From assembly GCA_022842905.1 (NCBI GenBank), contig JALHOS010000036.1, positions 1 through 32,518 of the forward strand: a stretch of 32,518 nucleotides of DNA. The letters are read 5' to 3'. The translations under genes were made by a program, and so were the position numbers. Shown piece after piece: positions 6,963 through 16,089 of the stretch; the stretch's first letter is position 1; each line of letters begins with the position of its first letter. The stretch comes from Myxococcaceae bacterium. Lineage in GTDB: Bacteria > Myxococcota > Myxococcia > Myxococcales > Myxococcaceae. The notes under the pieces are model-generated. The model was not told where the DNA came from and ran no database searches. It worked only from the letters and a program-made list of their open reading frames with translations.

Positions 6963-7046
6963 CTACACGAGCCGCCCCGCGGACGGTAGGGCCGTCGAGA
7001 AGAGGCTGGAATGACAGGGCAAATTCCGGCACGGTGCGGACCACCC

Positions 7047-7451
7047 ATGACTCGTGCCGGGCTGGTGGTGGCGGTGGTGCTGCTCAACGTGCTGGGCGGG
7101 GGCTGCGCCCGAGCGAAGGCCGTCGTGCGTGACGTGGCGATCGCCGAGGCGAAGGCGCAGCTCGACCAGGGGGCCGCGACGGCGCTCGACGCGAACGAAG
7201 AGAGCTTTCGCGCCAAGCACGGCTGGCTGCCCAACGCGGTGCTCTTGTCCAGCTACGACGAGTACGCGCTGAGCGAGCTGCCCGCGGACAAGGACCGGCC
7301 GCTCATCTTCTACTGTTCGAACAGGCTCTGAGGGGCCTCCCACGCAGCCGCCGGTCGGGCGGCGCAAGCAGGGTGGCAGCAGGTGTCCGTCATGAAGGAC
7401 GGGCTCAAGGGCTGGGTCCAGGCGGGGCACGCCGTTCAGAAGGCGCCGTAG
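7047..7451 (+). CDS. Rhodanese-like protein, probable selenoprotein (TGA 7329-7331 read as Sec)
   Basis: Read through one TGA, the frame gives a 134-residue rhodanese-like protein. Residues 1-25 look like a secretion or lipoprotein signal (hydrophobic core ending LGGGCA). The rhodanese part follows with ALDANEESFRAKHGWLPNAVLL, LPADKDRPLIFYC (Cys90, the expected catalytic Cys), then N-R-L-U95-GASH. After the TGA the family-like sequence continues in the same frame: AAGRAAQAGW, VSVMKDGLKGW and VQAGH, up to a TAG. Stopping at the TGA would remove the last third of the domain. The TGA sits five residues after Cys90, where as I recall related proteins have a second Cys. A hairpin follows (see 7336-7376). 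The start at 7047 places the signal peptide at the N-terminus; an ATG at 7011 is the alternative. A pseudogene with a nonsense mutation is the competing reading. Confidence 0.75.
7336..7376 (+). promoter_or_regulatory. Candidate bacterial SECIS element of the rhodanese-like gene
   Basis: A perfect 6-bp GC stem (GCCGCC 7347-7352 with GGCGGC 7358-7363) closes a five-base loop GGUCG. The loop starts 21 bases after the TGA; in E. coli fdhF the GGUC of the loop is at a similar distance (18 bases, from memory). A lower stem CCUCCC 7336-7341 with GGGUGG 7371-7376 (one U-U mismatch) extends it. Known bacterial SECIS elements bind SelB through a G/U in the apical loop, which this has. Confidence 0.65.
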
Positions 7452-7613
7452 CGCGCGGTCTCTCTCGGGTCCGGATCGACGACCCAAGAGTGCACTTCGA
7501 CCCGGCGCGCGCGCTCGACGAATTCGCGCGTTGGTGAGTTGGAGCGGCGCGGCGCAGGTTCTGCATTCGAGCTTCGGCTGCCTACTTCGGCAGACAAGGA
7601 GCGTCGTCCCCAC

Positions 7614-7952
7614 ATGGATCTGACCCACGAGCGCTTGAGCCCCATGCTGTACCGCATCACCGAGACGCTGAAGGACAACCCCGAGGAGCTCCACGCGTTC
7701 GAGCGGTGGGCGGTCGCCGTGCTGCAGGGCCTCGTCGCCGCGGCCGGAGAGGGTGACGCGCCGCTCAAGCGGGTGCTCATGGATCTGGGGCACGAGCTGG
7801 CGGATCTGCAGCGCGATCTCTCGGCAATTCACGTGACCGGCCGCAGCCAGGTGCGCCGCATGTGCCGCCGCGAGTGGCTGACGACGTTGATCGAGCTGGT
7901 CGACCAGAGCCGCGGGTACGGCGACTCCGGCGTCTGGCGCGTCGCGGCGTAG
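7614..7952 (+). CDS. Hypothetical protein (112 residues)
   Basis: An unrecognised, mostly helical small protein with no signal peptide or membrane segment. The ATG at 7614 is chosen because AAGGAG lies at 7596-7601; the frame is open further upstream but has no better site. Hydrophobic heptads are visible (LYRITETL, FERWAVAVLQGLVAA, LMDLGHELADLQRDL). The C-terminal half is basic around RSQVRRMCRREW. It stands alone, convergent with the ccm genes. The 160 bases before it (7452-7613) hold no gene that I can see. Confidence 0.65.
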   Translation: MDLTHERLSPMLYRITETLKDNPEELHAFERWAVAVLQGLVAAAGEGDAPLKRVLMDLGHELADLQRDLSAIHVTGRSQVRRMCRREWLTTLIELVDQSRGYGDSGVWRVAA

Positions 7953-7966
7953 TCTGAAGAGCGGCG

Positions 7967-8905
7967 CTACGGCAGCGGAGGCTTCGCCGCGGCCTGCGCG
8001 CGGAGCTGCTGGACCGCCATGCGCATCATCGGCGGGGCTTCGGGGCCGGCCTGCTCGAGGTACGCCTCGAAGTTCACCAGCGCGCGCGCCGAGTCCTGCT
8101 GATCCATGGCCATCATCCCCGCGAAGAGTCGGCCGTCGTAGGCCTCGGGGTACTTCGCGGCCAAGGACTCGAGCTCGCTGAGCGCGCGGGGCAGATCGCC
8201 CTCGAGCGCGACGATCACCGACCGCCCGACGCGGGTGCGCACGTGGAACGGGTCAATCAACGTCGCGCGGTGGACCATGGGCACGGCTTCTTCGAAGCGC
8301 TGCTTGCGCATGAGCGCCAGCGCGGCGGTGGCGAGGGTGTCCGGATCATCCGGGCTGTTCTTCGCCTGCGCGAGGAGTCGCTCGAGCTTCTCGTCGACGG
8401 GCGGCGGCTGGTTCTGCATGACCGCGGGGCCCGGCCCACCGGTGGCCGACATGCCTTCGGGGCGGGAGTCGCTGGACGCGTTGAGCTGAACGCCCAAGAA
8501 CACGAAGAAGGACACGAGCCCGCCGCCCAAGAGCGCGCCCTTGAGCGTGGGGTTGTTGGCCAAGAAGCCGGTGGGCTTGGCCTGTTCCTTCTGCTCCGAT
8601 CTCGCTTCGGCCTTGCGCAGCTCGTGCTGCTTCTGATCACGCTCGCGGAGCACCTGCGCGGCGGCCTTCTGGAGTCGCTCGCGCTCGGCTTCCCACCGGG
8701 CCGCGTCCGCCAGGTGTTTGTTCGCCGTGTGCTCCTTGAGCTCGGCGATCAGCGCCTGGTACCGCGCCTGGTAGTCGTCGACCGTCTCCAGCGGCTGGCT
8801 CTTGAGGCGCGACTTGTTGATCAGCAGGTAGCCCAGCGCGGCGGCCGCCGAGCCCCCCAGCACCCACAGCCCAGGACCCCAGTTCGTCGTGGCGCCAGCG
8901 TCCAT
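7967..8905 (-). CDS. CcmI-like TPR protein of cytochrome c maturation
   Basis: A 312-residue membrane protein with two hydrophobic segments (about residues 11-28 and 118-138) and a charged coiled-coil-like stretch between them (about 60-110). Tetratricopeptide-like helix pairs follow from about 170 to the end (for example DPDTLATAALALMRKQRFEEAV and YDGRLFAGMMAMDQQDSARAL). This is the layout of CcmI/CycH-type proteins, which hold apocytochrome c for CcmF and CcmH at the periplasmic face. The ATG at 8905 overlaps the ccmH stop by one base (TGATG); a GTG three bases upstream is also possible. It is the last gene of the minus-strand ccm run. Its TPR part is only loosely similar to classical CcmI, so the name is by context. 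Confidence 0.78.
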   Translation of the reverse strand: MDAGATTNWGPGLWVLGGSAAAALGYLLINKSRLKSQPLETVDDYQARYQALIAELKEHTANKHLADAARWEAERERLQKAAAQVLRERDQKQHELRKAEARSEQKEQAKPTGFLANNPTLKGALLGGGLVSFFVFLGVQLNASSDSRPEGMSATGGPGPAVMQNQPPPVDEKLERLLAQAKNSPDDPDTLATAALALMRKQRFEEAVPMVHRATLIDPFHVRTRVGRSVIVALEGDLPRALSELESLAAKYPEAYDGRLFAGMMAMDQQDSARALVNFEAYLEQAGPEAPPMMRMAVQQLRAQAAAKPPLP

Positions 8906-9417
8906 CACTTCTCCAGATCGGCGCGGACCTGCGCCAGGTACGGGTCTTCGTCAGGGCTTTGCGGCGCGGGCGCGGCGGGCGCGGCCTTCGCGGCGTCGGG
9001 GGCGGACGGGGCTGGGGCCAGCTCCGACGGCAGCCCGCGCTTCTTGGACTGCAGCCAGATCAACAGCAGCCCCACGGCGAGCAACCCCACCGGCGCGGTC
9101 CACAGCACGGTGTTGAGCCCGCCGGTCGTCGGCTCGAGCAGCACCCACTCACCGTAGCGGGCCACGAAGTAGTCGAGGATCTCCTGGTCAGACTTGTTCT
9201 CGGCCACGAGCTCGCGGACCTTGTCGAGCTGCGCGCGGGCCATGGAAGCGGGGGAGTCGCTGATCGCCACGCCCTGGCAGACGGCGCAGCGCAGCTGTTT
9301 ACCCAGCCGCTGCACGCGGGCCTCACGCTCGGTGTCGAGCGGCGCCTGGCCTTCGCGCGGCGGGGCGTACCCCTGGCCCAGCACCATCACCAACCCCAGC
9401 GCCAACACGGTGCTCAT
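8905..9417 (-). CDS. ccmH: Cytochrome c maturation protein CcmH
   Basis: A 170-residue membrane-anchored periplasmic thiol protein. It has an N-terminal signal segment (residues 3-15) and the family motif LRCAVCQ with Cys44 and Cys47. The following helices (MARAQLDKVRELV and EILDYFVARYGEWVLLEP) are diagnostic. One transmembrane helix lies near 104-122, with an Ala/Pro-rich cytoplasmic tail. CcmH reduces the CxxCH haem-binding cysteines of apocytochrome c together with CcmG and hands them to CcmF. Its ATG overlaps the ccmG stop (ATGA), and its stop overlaps the next start, so the genes are tightly coupled. Confidence 0.95.
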   Translation of the reverse strand: MSTVLALGLVMVLGQGYAPPREGQAPLDTEREARVQRLGKQLRCAVCQGVAISDSPASMARAQLDKVRELVAENKSDQEILDYFVARYGEWVLLEPTTGGLNTVLWTAPVGLLAVGLLLIWLQSKKRGLPSELAPAPSAPDAAKAAPAAPAPQSPDEDPYLAQVRADLEK

Positions 9418-10127
9418 GGCTGCTTCACCTTCTGCTGGAGCTCGTCGGACTGCTTGGCCATGGCGAGGATCTGCTCCGCCGTCTGCCCCCCGACCGCCAG
9501 CGCGCGCACGAAGATCGTCGTGTTGTCCGCCGGCACCGGGAAGCTCGCGAGCTTCGCCTGCGTCAGCCCGTCGAGCGCCCCCTTCACCTGCGCTTCGATC
9601 GCCGGGTCCTCGAGGATCTCACTGACGCGGGCGTTGAGCGTGTAGTCGTCGAGCGGGGCGGCGTACTTCCCGCGAATCACGCCCTGCTTGGTGACGAAGT
9701 ACGTCTCCGGCACGCCGGCCACCGCGTAGTCCACCGCCACGGTGGACTTGGGATCGAACAGCTGCGTGAGCGACCAGCCGTGCTGCGCCAGGAACTGCTT
9801 GGTGTTCTCTTCGGTGTCCTCGAAGACGATGCCCAAGAAAGCGACGCGGTCCGCGAAGCGCTTCGCGCCGGCCTCGAGCACCGGGTGCTCCTGCTTGCAC
9901 GGCCCGCACCACGTCGCCCAGAAGTTGATGACGAGGGGCCGACCCGCGTAGTCCGACAGCGAGACGAACTCGCCGTTGTCCAGCCGCTTGATGCGGAAGG
10001 CCGGGGCGGGCTTGCCGTCGAGCATGAAGGGCACCGCGTGCGGATCGGTGCCGAAGGCCTTCGCCATGACGAAGAGGATGAGGCCGGTCGCGGCCAGCGC
10101 GATGCCGACGCCGATCGCTCGATTCAC
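9414..10127 (-). CDS. ccmG: Thioredoxin-like CcmG/DsbE family protein
   Basis: A 237-residue membrane-tethered thioredoxin-fold protein. An N-terminal anchor (residues 4-22) is followed by the redlike domain with WCGPC (Cys74, Cys77), the acidic insertion GIVFEDTEENTKQFL, and the cis-Pro segment GVPETYFVTKQG. It passes electrons to apocytochrome c or CcmH in the periplasm. The protein is longer than the usual 160-185 residues: about 60 extra C-terminal residues (from about 178) contain LTQAKLASFPVP and a helical tail. The GTG start overlaps the ccmF stop (GTGA), and GGAGGTAA in the end of ccmF serves as its ribosome site. Confidence 0.93.
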   Translation of the reverse strand: MNRAIGVGIALAATGLILFVMAKAFGTDPHAVPFMLDGKPAPAFRIKRLDNGEFVSLSDYAGRPLVINFWATWCGPCKQEHPVLEAGAKRFADRVAFLGIVFEDTEENTKQFLAQHGWSLTQLFDPKSTVAVDYAVAGVPETYFVTKQGVIRGKYAAPLDDYTLNARVSEILEDPAIEAQVKGALDGLTQAKLASFPVPADNTTIFVRALAVGGQTAEQILAMAKQSDELQQKVKQP

Positions 10128-12148
10128 GCGTTACCTCCGGTCGCGGCGGCTGCGGGCACGGTCGCCTCGGGGCTGGGTGAGGTCTTCTGCGCCGCCTTGC
10201 GCTGCGGCCACAGGGCGATCAGCGTCCCCAGGATCAGCAGCGGAATCGAGTACCAGATCCACCCGACCAGCGGGAACACCCAGGTGTTGAACGACGCGGT
10301 CTCGGCCTGCGGATCGTACGAGAGCAGCGACACGTACACGTCGCGGAAGACCATCTCCTGCACGCTGGGCGAGCCGATGGGGTCGGTGCTGCGCGCGTAG
10401 TAGTTCATGCGCGGGGCCTCTTCGCCGTGGTGCGCGGTGATCGTGCCGTCCGGGGAGATCACCGACACGTTCGCGCTGGTCCAGGTCTTGTGCGGCGCCT
10501 GGCCCGACTCGAGCCCGTCGAAGCGCAGCAGGTACGCGCCGACCTTGAGCGTCTCGCCCTTCTTCAGCGCGCCCGTCGCGTGCGTCTTGAACGCGGCCGA
10601 CGCGGCGATGGCGACCACGATCGCCACGATCCCCAGGTGCACCACGTAGCCGCCGAAGCGCCGGCGCGCGCGGCTGGCGCTGCGGAACAGCGCGACGAAG
10701 GCCGTCTCCTTCTGCTCGTCCATGCGCTGCTTGGCGGGCAGGAACATCTCCCGGAGCGTGATGACGGTCGCGAACGCGGCGAGCCCAAAGGCCAGCAGCG
10801 GCATGAAGCCGCGGTAGCCCAGCGCCGCGCAGACCGCGATCGTCGCCAGGCCGACGATGCCGGGGATCGTGAACTGCCGCTTGAGCACCGCGGGATCGGC
10901 CTGCCCCCATGGCAGCACCGGGCCGACGCCCATGAGGAAGAGCATGAGCAGCCCGCCGGGCAGCGCCATGGTGTTGAAGTACGGCTCGCCCACGCTGATC
11001 TTCTTCTTCTGCAGCGCTTCGGTGACCAGCGGGAACGTCGTCCCCAAGAGCACCGTGAAGGTCTGCGCCACGAACACCAGGTTGTTCACCAGGATCGACC
11101 CTTCACGCGAGGCGACCGTGGCCAGGTTCGTCTCCGCGACCAGCAGGTGTCCGCGCACCGTCAACAGCACGATGCAGAAGACGATCACGATGGCGATGAA
11201 GACCAGGAACGTGGGGCCGATGTCCGACTGCGTGAAGCTGTGCACCGAGTTGAAGACGCCCGAGCGCGTCATGAAGGTGCCGATGAGCGTGAGCACGAAG
11301 CTGCCCAGCGCGAGCGCAATCGTCCACAGCTTGAGCGACTTGCGGCGCTCGAGCACCATGGTCGAGTGAATGAACGCCGTCGCCGTGAGCCACGGCATGA
11401 ACGACGCGTTCTCCACCGGATCCCACGCCCAGTAGCCGCCCCAGCCGAGCACCGCGTACGCCCACCAGGACCCGAGGATGATGCCAATGGACAGGAACAG
11501 CCACGGCACGAGTGTCCACTTGCGCAGGGGCACCAGCCACGCGTCGCCCAGCTCACCGCGGAGCAGCGCGCCCGCGGCGATCCCGAACGGAATCGTCATG
11601 CCCACGTAGCCCAGGTAAAGCATGGGCGGGTGGATGATCATGAGCGGGTGGTTCTGCAGGAGCGGGTTGACGCCGGGGCCGTCGGACAGCGGGTTGGGGA
11701 TCGCGGTCCACGGGTTGGCCGGCCCGGCGATCAGGAACGCGAAGAACGTCGCCACCGCGGCGATCGTGCCCAGCGTCAGCAGCATGTAGCGCTCGTGCTC
11801 CTTGCGGTAGACGAGCGTGAACGCGAGCACGTACAGGCCCATGATCGCGCCCCAGAAGAGGATCGACCCTTCCAGCGCGCTCCACAGCGAGACGATGGTG
11901 AAGATCGTCGGCGTCGCCCGGCTGCCGACCTGAGAGACGTACTTCACCGAGAAGTCGTGCTCGAGCAGCGCCTTCACCATGACCAGGTTGGACCCGATCA
12001 TGGACGCGGAGAACGCGTACATGGCGCCGCGCACCCACGGCAGCGCGCCGTCGCGCCGGGTCATGCCGGTGTACAGGCCGACGACCGCGGCGAAGACCGC
12101 GCAGGCCAACCCGAAGAGGATGAGGCCGTAACCCAGAGTCGAATTCAC
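10124..12148 (-). CDS. ccmF: Cytochrome c haem lyase subunit CcmF
   Basis: A 674-residue polytopic inner-membrane protein with about 14-15 hydrophobic segments. The WWD haem-handling domain is clear (WGGYWAWDPVENASF, about residues 236-250), with conserved histidines around HPLMIIHPPMLYLG (167-180). It ligates haem from CcmE to the reduced cysteines of apocytochrome c with CcmH. A large periplasmic loop lies between the last two hydrophobic regions (about 525-620), and the tail is Ala/Pro-rich. The GTG start at 12148 fits the N-terminal signal-anchor. ccmA, B, C, D and E are not in the window, so the maturation system is split across the genome or only partly shown. Confidence 0.95.
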   Translation of the reverse strand: MNSTLGYGLILFGLACAVFAAVVGLYTGMTRRDGALPWVRGAMYAFSASMIGSNLVMVKALLEHDFSVKYVSQVGSRATPTIFTIVSLWSALEGSILFWGAIMGLYVLAFTLVYRKEHERYMLLTLGTIAAVATFFAFLIAGPANPWTAIPNPLSDGPGVNPLLQNHPLMIIHPPMLYLGYVGMTIPFGIAAGALLRGELGDAWLVPLRKWTLVPWLFLSIGIILGSWWAYAVLGWGGYWAWDPVENASFMPWLTATAFIHSTMVLERRKSLKLWTIALALGSFVLTLIGTFMTRSGVFNSVHSFTQSDIGPTFLVFIAIVIVFCIVLLTVRGHLLVAETNLATVASREGSILVNNLVFVAQTFTVLLGTTFPLVTEALQKKKISVGEPYFNTMALPGGLLMLFLMGVGPVLPWGQADPAVLKRQFTIPGIVGLATIAVCAALGYRGFMPLLAFGLAAFATVITLREMFLPAKQRMDEQKETAFVALFRSASRARRRFGGYVVHLGIVAIVVAIAASAAFKTHATGALKKGETLKVGAYLLRFDGLESGQAPHKTWTSANVSVISPDGTITAHHGEEAPRMNYYARSTDPIGSPSVQEMVFRDVYVSLLSYDPQAETASFNTWVFPLVGWIWYSIPLLILGTLIALWPQRKAAQKTSPSPEATVPAAAATGGNA

Positions 12149-15650: not shown

Positions 15651-16013
15651 GGTGTCCCTCCTCGTGGTGCCGCCCTTCGAAAAGCGACGGGGGCCGCCGC
15701 GCTCACGGGGGCCGACCCACGCGCCTGACGAGCTCGAGAACTTCCTCCAGCTCACCAAACCCGCCGCGGCAGACGCTCGAGCGACACCTTCAGGCCGACT
15801 GCTCCTGAAGGGGCCTTCGAGGCCGAGTGGAGTGGGGCGTGGCTTCCTGCGAGCGCCTCACGGTGATCGTCGCAGCCCTGCAAACGAGCCTGCGGGCTTC
15901 TTCGACCGTGGCGAGGCGCTGGCGACTTCTCTTCGGGCCAGGCGTCTACGACGTCCACCCCACCGGCGTGCTGCGGCCGTGGGACTGCTCCAGCGTGCGC
16001 GACAGCCCCCAGG
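15651..16013. other. Intergenic stretch with a hairpin, no gene seen
   Basis: No frame here reads like a protein. An inverted repeat CCTTCAGG (15787-15794) / CCTGAAGG (15804-15811) forms an 8-bp stem, followed by GGCC-TTCGA-GGCC. I cannot assign either a function. The stretch just upstream of the SPFH gene presumably holds its promoter, but no clear -35/-10 pair was found. Confidence 0.4.
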
Positions 16014-16089
16014 TTGGGCGAGGAGGAGTTGAACCTCCGACGGCGAGACGACCAAGTCTCGTGCTCTAACCAGGCTGAGCTATCGCTCC
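16014..16089 (-). tRNA. tRNA-like sequence, probably degenerate (anticodon uncertain)
   Basis: On the minus strand a 76-base cloverleaf can be drawn. The D arm (GCTC/GAGC with the GGTTA loop), a 5-bp anticodon stem (CGAGA/TCTCG), a five-base variable loop and a perfect T arm (GGAGG-TTCAACT-CCTCC) are all good. Two parts are not normal: the anticodon loop has eight bases (CTTGGTCG) instead of seven, and the acceptor stem GGAGCGA/TCGCCCA has mismatches at pairs 1 and 3. By position the anticodon would be UGG (Pro); by resemblance of TTGGT it would be GGU (Thr). CCA is not encoded. It is either a decayed tRNA or an unusual one with an enlarged loop. It is not a tRNA-Sec. Confidence 0.5.

What the first reader, a model, noticed from the sequence alone, without database searches (positions are those of the whole stretch)
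7047..7451. Rhodanese-like gene with in-frame TGA: probable selenoprotein
The domain's catalytic Cys90 is followed five residues later by TGA. The same frame then continues for 40 codons with rhodanese-like sequence (ASHAAAGRAAQAGW, VSVMKDGLKGW) and ends at TAG. A GC stem with a GGUCG loop starts the right distance after the TGA. Selenocysteine at this second thiol position of an exported rhodanese would be unusual and would give a Cys-Sec pair on one loop.
Basis: partly seen in the sequence, partly recalled or inferred. Interest (0 to 1): 0.85.

Follow-up and report, generated by a model that had tools for sequence, protein, structure and literature searches.

The report
Rhodanese selenoprotein with Cys-Sec loop
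A small, probably exported sulfur-handling protein of a myxobacterium appears to carry selenocysteine (the rare 21st amino acid) beside its catalytic cysteine, and its relatives switch that position between selenocysteine and cysteine.

Summary
Window 7047-7451 encodes a rhodanese-domain protein (PF00581, E 1.3e-10). Its codon 95 is an in-frame TGA (7329-7331), five residues after the catalytic-type Cys90. The genome has tRNA-Sec, SelB, SelA and SelD. A search of 195 genomes of the phylum gave 75 matches: the aligned codon is TGA in 31 and a Cys codon in 44. A hairpin of 6 or more bp with a 5-nt loop, 21 nt after the TGA, is in 31 of 31 TGA forms and 0 of 41 Cys forms tested, with compensatory changes. 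SelA is in 16 of 16 TGA genomes against 8 of 15 Cys-only ones. So it is, with little doubt, a selenoprotein. Its role (a Cys-x4-Sec persulfide or disulfide-reducing loop) is inference. Rhodanese selenoproteins are a known kind: TsoB has UxxxxU, and the catalogued form 1 (UxxS) may be this same family, whose sequence I could not get. The protein reaches no NCBIfam cut-off. Verdict: real, a new member of a known kind, moderate interest.

The parts
7047..7451 (+). Rhodanese-domain selenoprotein gene, 134 residues with Sec95; ATG 7047, stop TAG 7449-7451 (an ATG at 7011 is an alternative start)
7047..7106 (+). Hydrophobic N-terminus (MTRAGLVVAVVLLNVLGGGC): probable signal peptide, possibly a lipoprotein one
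   Evidence: read from the sequence and relatives; no predictor run
7314..7316 (+). Cys90 codon, position of the rhodanese nucleophile
   Evidence: invariant in 31 of 31 aligned proteins; loop start in the model
7329..7331 (+). In-frame TGA read as selenocysteine 95
   Evidence: 31 TGA and 44 Cys codons at this site in 75 matches
7347..7363 (+). bSECIS hairpin: arms 7347-7352 and 7358-7363, loop GGUCG 7353-7357
   Evidence: 31 of 31 TGA forms, 0 of 41 Cys forms; compensatory pairs
7967..12148 (-). Context only: cytochrome c maturation genes (CcmF-like, thioredoxin-like, CcmH-like, TPR protein)
   Evidence: Pfam; neighbours also in L093-L095

Best explanation
The gene encodes a small, probably exported single-domain rhodanese whose active-site loop is Cys-x4-Sec. 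UGA 7329-7331 is read as selenocysteine, directed by the hairpin at 7347-7363 acting with SelB and tRNA-Sec (supported by comparative sequence evidence, not by experiment). Most likely mode of action (inferred, about 0.5): Cys90 takes up a sulfane sulfur or reacts with an oxidised thiol; Sec95, at the other end of the same loop, attacks it and resolves it as a Cys90-Sec95 selenenylsulfide; a periplasmic thioredoxin-like partner re-reduces it. It would then be a persulfide or disulfide reductase rather than a plain sulfurtransferase. Lineages without Sec decoding keep a CxxxxC form.
For: In-frame TGA inside one rhodanese domain. tRNA-Sec 71.9 bits, SelB, SelA and SelD in the genome. Site is TGA in 31 and Cys in 44 of 75 matches. 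Hairpin in 31 of 31 TGA forms and 0 of 41 Cys forms; random synonymous codons give 6.61 of 31; pairs 4, 5 and 7 change on both sides among 23 distinct sequences. SelA in 16 of 16 TGA genomes against 8 of 15 Cys-only ones. Cys paralogue in the same genome, ending at TGA, so TGA is not reassigned. Cys90 and Sec/Cys95 invariant in 31 of 31 aligned proteins. Model: strand 86-89, loop 90-96, helix 97-107, pLDDT 89.8; rhodanese fold, GlpE 1gmx Z 16.4.
Against: No protein evidence. The hairpin's energy is not special in this GC-rich DNA. One of the 16 TGA genomes, G051, shows no tRNA-Sec above the cut-off, though it has SelA. The 31 TGA forms are related, so their count is not 31 independent events; the tree needs 6 changes, 3 of them forced. 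No conserved neighbour supports the proposed chemistry, and the Cys90-Sec95 distance was not measured.
Confidence: 0.88

Rival explanations
1. The TGA is an ordinary stop or a sequencing error, leaving a truncated or dead rhodanese gene.
For: A standard ORF list ends the frame at 7331; most TGA codons are stops.
Against: TGA at the same site in 31 matches, otherwise Cys only; protein-level constraint after it; hairpin restricted to TGA forms; Sec machinery present.
Confidence: 0.03
2. It is a selenoprotein, but the family is already catalogued as 'rhodanese-like domain-containing protein form 1' (motif UxxS, WP_010941598.1), so only the chemistry is open.
For: 20 of the 31 TGA forms, the window's included, have Ser three residues after the Sec, that is UxxS; the review gives UxxS for form 1.
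Against: The other 11 have UxxC. A 2006 table lists no rhodanese among the selenoproteins of Anaeromyxobacter dehalogenans or Geobacter sulfurreducens (passage). The form 1 sequence could not be obtained, nor its paper.
Confidence: 0.4
3. It is a selenoprotein in which Sec95 does not resolve a persulfide: it may itself carry sulfur or selenium as a perselenide, or reduce an oxyanion, as the rhodanese-fold As/Sb reductase does.
For: The fold also houses an As/Sb reductase (2j6p among the matches, Z 12.5); the match is to the fold only.
Against: Cys90 is kept in 31 of 31 aligned proteins, which fits a two-residue loop better than a Sec-only nucleophile.
Confidence: 0.35

Closest known systems
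TsoB, rhodanese/DsbD fusion-like selenoprotein (NCBIfam NF045694; form 5 in PMC13188914)
   Same: Rhodanese domain; matched by 31 of 31 members. In the window protein, residues 78-133 align with profile positions 104-159, equal lengths. Its motif UxxxxU has two Sec at the same spacing as Cys90 and Sec95.
   Different: TsoB is a 572-position fusion model; this is a 134-residue single domain, 29.7 bits against a cut-off of 805, with Cys instead of Sec at the first position. That the motif falls on residues 90/95 is inferred from the ungapped range.
Rhodanese-like selenoprotein form 1 (UxxS, WP_010941598.1)
   Same: Rhodanese domain with Sec; the UxxS motif fits 20 of 31 TGA forms.
   Different: Unknown: its sequence could not be compared.
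rhodanese_LYCAU (NF041203; form 3, CxU)
   Same: Rhodanese-related (seleno)protein; matched by 31 of 31 members, best E 3e-12.
   Different: Motif CxU puts Sec two residues after Cys, here five; 29.2 bits against a cut-off of 115.
PQQ-dependent catabolism-associated CXXCW motif protein (TIGR03865)
   Same: Best NCBIfam E-value for the window protein, 1.4e-8 over residues 72-132; two-Cys motif by its name.
   Different: 34.8 bits against a cut-off of 128.05; CXXCW is not CxxxxU; no selenium in its description.
GlpE-type single-domain sulfurtransferases
   Same: Fold: 1gmx, Z 16.4, rmsd 1.8 over 105 residues.
   Different: 20% identity. From general knowledge, GlpE has a single loop Cys and no second thiol.

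Membership tests
Bacterial selenoprotein (SECIS-directed) | In-frame TGA aligned with Cys in homologues | tested here: met
   31 TGA, 44 Cys of 75 matches
Bacterial selenoprotein (SECIS-directed) | Sec decoding genes in the genome | tested here: met
   tRNA-Sec, SelB, SelA, SelD
Bacterial selenoprotein (SECIS-directed) | Hairpin within published bSECIS limits, conserved in Sec forms | tested here: met
   31 of 31 TGA forms against 0 of 41 Cys forms; limits from PMC13188914
Bacterial selenoprotein (SECIS-directed) | Selenium in the purified protein | not testable with these tools
   needs expression or mass spectrometry
Rhodanese domain (PF00581) | Match above the Pfam gathering score and rhodanese fold | tested here: met
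   42 bits against 22.2; fold matches
Rhodanese domain (PF00581) | Sulfurtransferase activity | not testable with these tools
   needs an enzyme assay
TsoB (NF045694) | Score above the curated cut-off (full fusion protein) | tested here: not met
   29.7 bits against 805
TsoB (NF045694) | Sec at both loop positions (UxxxxU) | tested here: not met
   first position is Cys in the window and in 31 of 31 aligned proteins
rhodanese_LYCAU (NF041203) | Score above cut-off and CxU spacing | tested here: not met
   29.2 bits against 115; spacing is CxxxxU
PQQ_CXXCW (TIGR03865) | Score above cut-off | tested here: not met
   34.8 bits against 128.05
Rhodanese-like selenoprotein form 1 (UxxS) | UxxS motif at the homologous loop position | tested here: inconclusive
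   UxxS is present here, but the form 1 sequence could not be compared

The most novel reading that the evidence does not exclude
An uncatalogued family of exported single-domain rhodaneses whose CxxxxU loop works as a selenenylsulfide redox switch (a persulfide or disulfide reductase of the cell envelope), a stand-alone counterpart of TsoB, in which Sec and Cys have been exchanged several times within one phylum in step with Sec decoding.
Probability: 0.3. Interest if true: 0.6.

Novelty: new member of a known kind. Interest (0 to 1): 0.42.

Why it matters
Standard ORF calling ends this protein at residue 94, losing the Sec and the last 39 residues, so such genes are likely to be misannotated. 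The family gives a natural Sec/Cys comparison set (31 Sec and 44 Cys matches in one phylum, sometimes both in one genome), well suited to asking what selenium adds in a rhodanese loop. In the passages I read, rhodanese selenoproteins are listed as predicted, with no tested function.

Tried and rejected
Plain stop, pseudogene or sequencing error: rejected by the recurrence of the TGA. Genome-wide TGA reassignment: rejected, because the Cys paralogue in the same genome and other family members end at TGA. Hairpin energy as proof: not usable, z near zero. The minus-strand ORF 6963-7832 across the gene looks like a shadow: its matches are ORFs antisense to the homologous rhodanese genes. Function from neighbours: Ccm genes lie near the Sec gene only in the window and L093-L095. 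They are not seen in L087 or L096-L099, and L100 is too short to tell. L096, L098 and L099 share neighbours that in L098 are ThiC, enolase and GlpX-type FBPase. No match in plasmids, phages or viral contigs. The only named genome hits were a Myxococcaceae MAG and a remote rhodanese in an Asaia MAG.

Rows left out: the pattern script required [LIVM][VIL]FYC and missed 4 of the 44 Cys rows. These were read and all are TGC, but they are not in the hairpin count. The 41 Cys forms counted there are 40 of those 44 plus L074. L004 and L015 are the same gene and were counted once. The tRNA-Sec comparison (15 of 16 against 7 of 15) uses a 60-bit limit chosen after seeing the scores; at Rfam's 47 bits the second figure is 9 of 15. 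One search also printed a count of further in-frame TGA codons, which is zero partly by construction and is not used.

Full report
Observation. The frame 7047-7451 is open apart from one TGA at 7329-7331 and reads as a 134-residue protein with Cys90 and U95. Pfam finds one rhodanese domain across the TGA, residues 33-125, E 1.3e-10. A standard ORF list ends the frame at 7331. The hairpin GCCGCC-GGUCG-GGCGGC lies at 7347-7363.

Machinery. The window is contig C36 of a 7.85 Mb assembly, 98.9% complete. The assembly holds tRNA-Sec (71.9 bits; ARAGORN names it SeC, anticodon TCA), SelB (74.3 bits), SelA (451.8 bits) and SelD (378.3 bits).

Relatives. A search of 195 genomes of the phylum gave 60 genomes and 75 matches at E <= 1e-9; 31 matches contain one TGA and 44 none. 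At the aligned site the 31 have TGA and the 44 have TGC or TGT (31 and 40, the last four Cys forms). The genome's own second copy is a Cys form (L002). Genome G023 holds a Sec and a Cys form about 1 kb apart. One relative, L004, comes from a contig titled Myxococcaceae bacterium. The window is therefore most likely from a myxobacterium.

SECIS. A stem of 6 to 8 pairs closing a 5-nt loop, 21 nt after the TGA, is in 31 of 31 TGA forms and 0 of 41 Cys forms; synonymous codons drawn at random from the Cys forms' usage give 6.61 of 31. Among 23 distinct TGA sequences, pairs 1 to 6 are kept in all, and pairs 4, 5 and 7 show changes on both sides. The Cys form L023 encodes the same AAGRA peptide with other codons and lacks the hairpin in this register. 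In the laxer test (any loop start from 16 to 33 nt), 5 of the 41 Cys forms also have stems of 6 to 7 pairs or, for L023, 7 pairs elsewhere, so a hairpin as such is not rare here; the fixed place is what separates the groups. The published limits for bacterial SECIS elements are met (PMC13188914, section 5 read).

Co-occurrence. Of 60 related genomes 31 had a match, 16 of them with TGA. SelA is in 16 of 16 TGA genomes and 8 of 15 others (Fisher p 0.0024). tRNA-Sec at 60 bits or more is in 15 of 16 and 7 of 15 (p 0.0059). Genomes are related, so these p-values are optimistic. The exception, G051, has SelA but no tRNA-Sec even with laxer filters; an assembly gap is my guess. A tree of 72 proteins needs at least 6 Sec/Cys changes, 3 of them forced by well-supported branches. 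Two Cys forms nested among Sec forms (L036, L091) come from genomes G055 and G041, which show no SelA and no tRNA-Sec above the cut-off, as expected if Cys replaced Sec when decoding was lost. The tree has few columns, and many forks are unresolved.

Structure and mode of action. AlphaFold2 gives a confident rhodanese domain (mean pLDDT 89.8; the first 20 residues are poor) with strand 86-89, loop 90-96 and helix 97-107. The closest solved chains are rhodaneses, led by 3tp9 (Z 17.1) and GlpE 1gmx (Z 16.4). Cys90 takes the place of the rhodanese nucleophile (general knowledge of the family), and Sec95 lies near the end of the same loop. Both positions are invariant, counting Sec as Cys, in 31 of 31 aligned proteins. 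I infer a two-residue redox loop: Cys90 carries the sulfur or mixed disulfide, and Sec95 resolves it as a selenenylsulfide. The existence of TsoB, a rhodanese joined to a DsbD-like part (named so), fits re-reduction by a thiol relay. The N-terminus looks like a signal peptide with a Cys that could be lipidated (no predictor run). None of this chemistry is shown, and the residue 90-95 distance was not measured.

Context. The gene faces a cytochrome c maturation cluster, 7967-12148 on the minus strand. Members of it lie near the Sec gene in L093, L094 and L095 too, but not in L087 or L096-L099. The link is weak, and I read no function from it.

Known families. A 2026 review lists five rhodanese selenoprotein forms with motifs UxxS, UxxG, CxU, UxxG and UxxxxU (PMC13188914: outline, passages, section 5 and part of section 7). 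An earlier review names rhodanese forms as predicted selenoproteins (PMC9312934, passages). An algal rhodanese-like selenoprotein is mentioned in PMC7539508 (passage). Marine surveys list rhodanese-related families (PMC1088965 and PMC2398784, passages). No NCBIfam model reaches its cut-off for the window protein; for the other 30 members only E-values were seen. Searches of the held library for rhodanese or selenoprotein with bacteria and SECIS, myxobacteria, TsoB, Anaeromyxobacter, Geobacter, Myxococc-, extH, and for the motif CxxxxU and related phrases turned up, in the listings and passages seen, no description of this family. The papers behind forms 1, 2, 3 and 5 are not held. Form 1 (UxxS) may be this family: 20 of 31 TGA forms have UxxS and 11 have UxxC. 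I therefore file it as a new member of a known kind.

Noticed in passing
window 16012-16089 (-): A tRNA gene (Rfam tRNA 43 bits) that ARAGORN cannot name and gives a four-base anticodon, tggt. Its nearest relatives, found in 2 of the 34 other genomes searched (86-89% identical), are called tRNA-Met with anticodon cat; the window copy has one extra base in the anticodon loop region and one in the D-loop region. It may be a decaying copy or an odd isoacceptor.
   Followed up: partly
L039, L041, L042, L065-L067, L069-L073: In 11 of the 31 Sec forms the Sec is followed by UxxC-H instead of UxxS-H, so a third thiol lies three residues after the Sec.
   Followed up: no
L087 (G023), Sec form near 6.0-6.4 kb and Cys form near 7.4-7.7 kb: A Sec rhodanese and a Cys rhodanese lie about 1 kb apart on opposite strands.
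   Followed up: no
genome G051: It carries a TGA-form rhodanese and SelA, but no tRNA-Sec above the Rfam cut-off even with laxer filters: an assembly gap or a divergent tRNA-Sec.
   Followed up: partly
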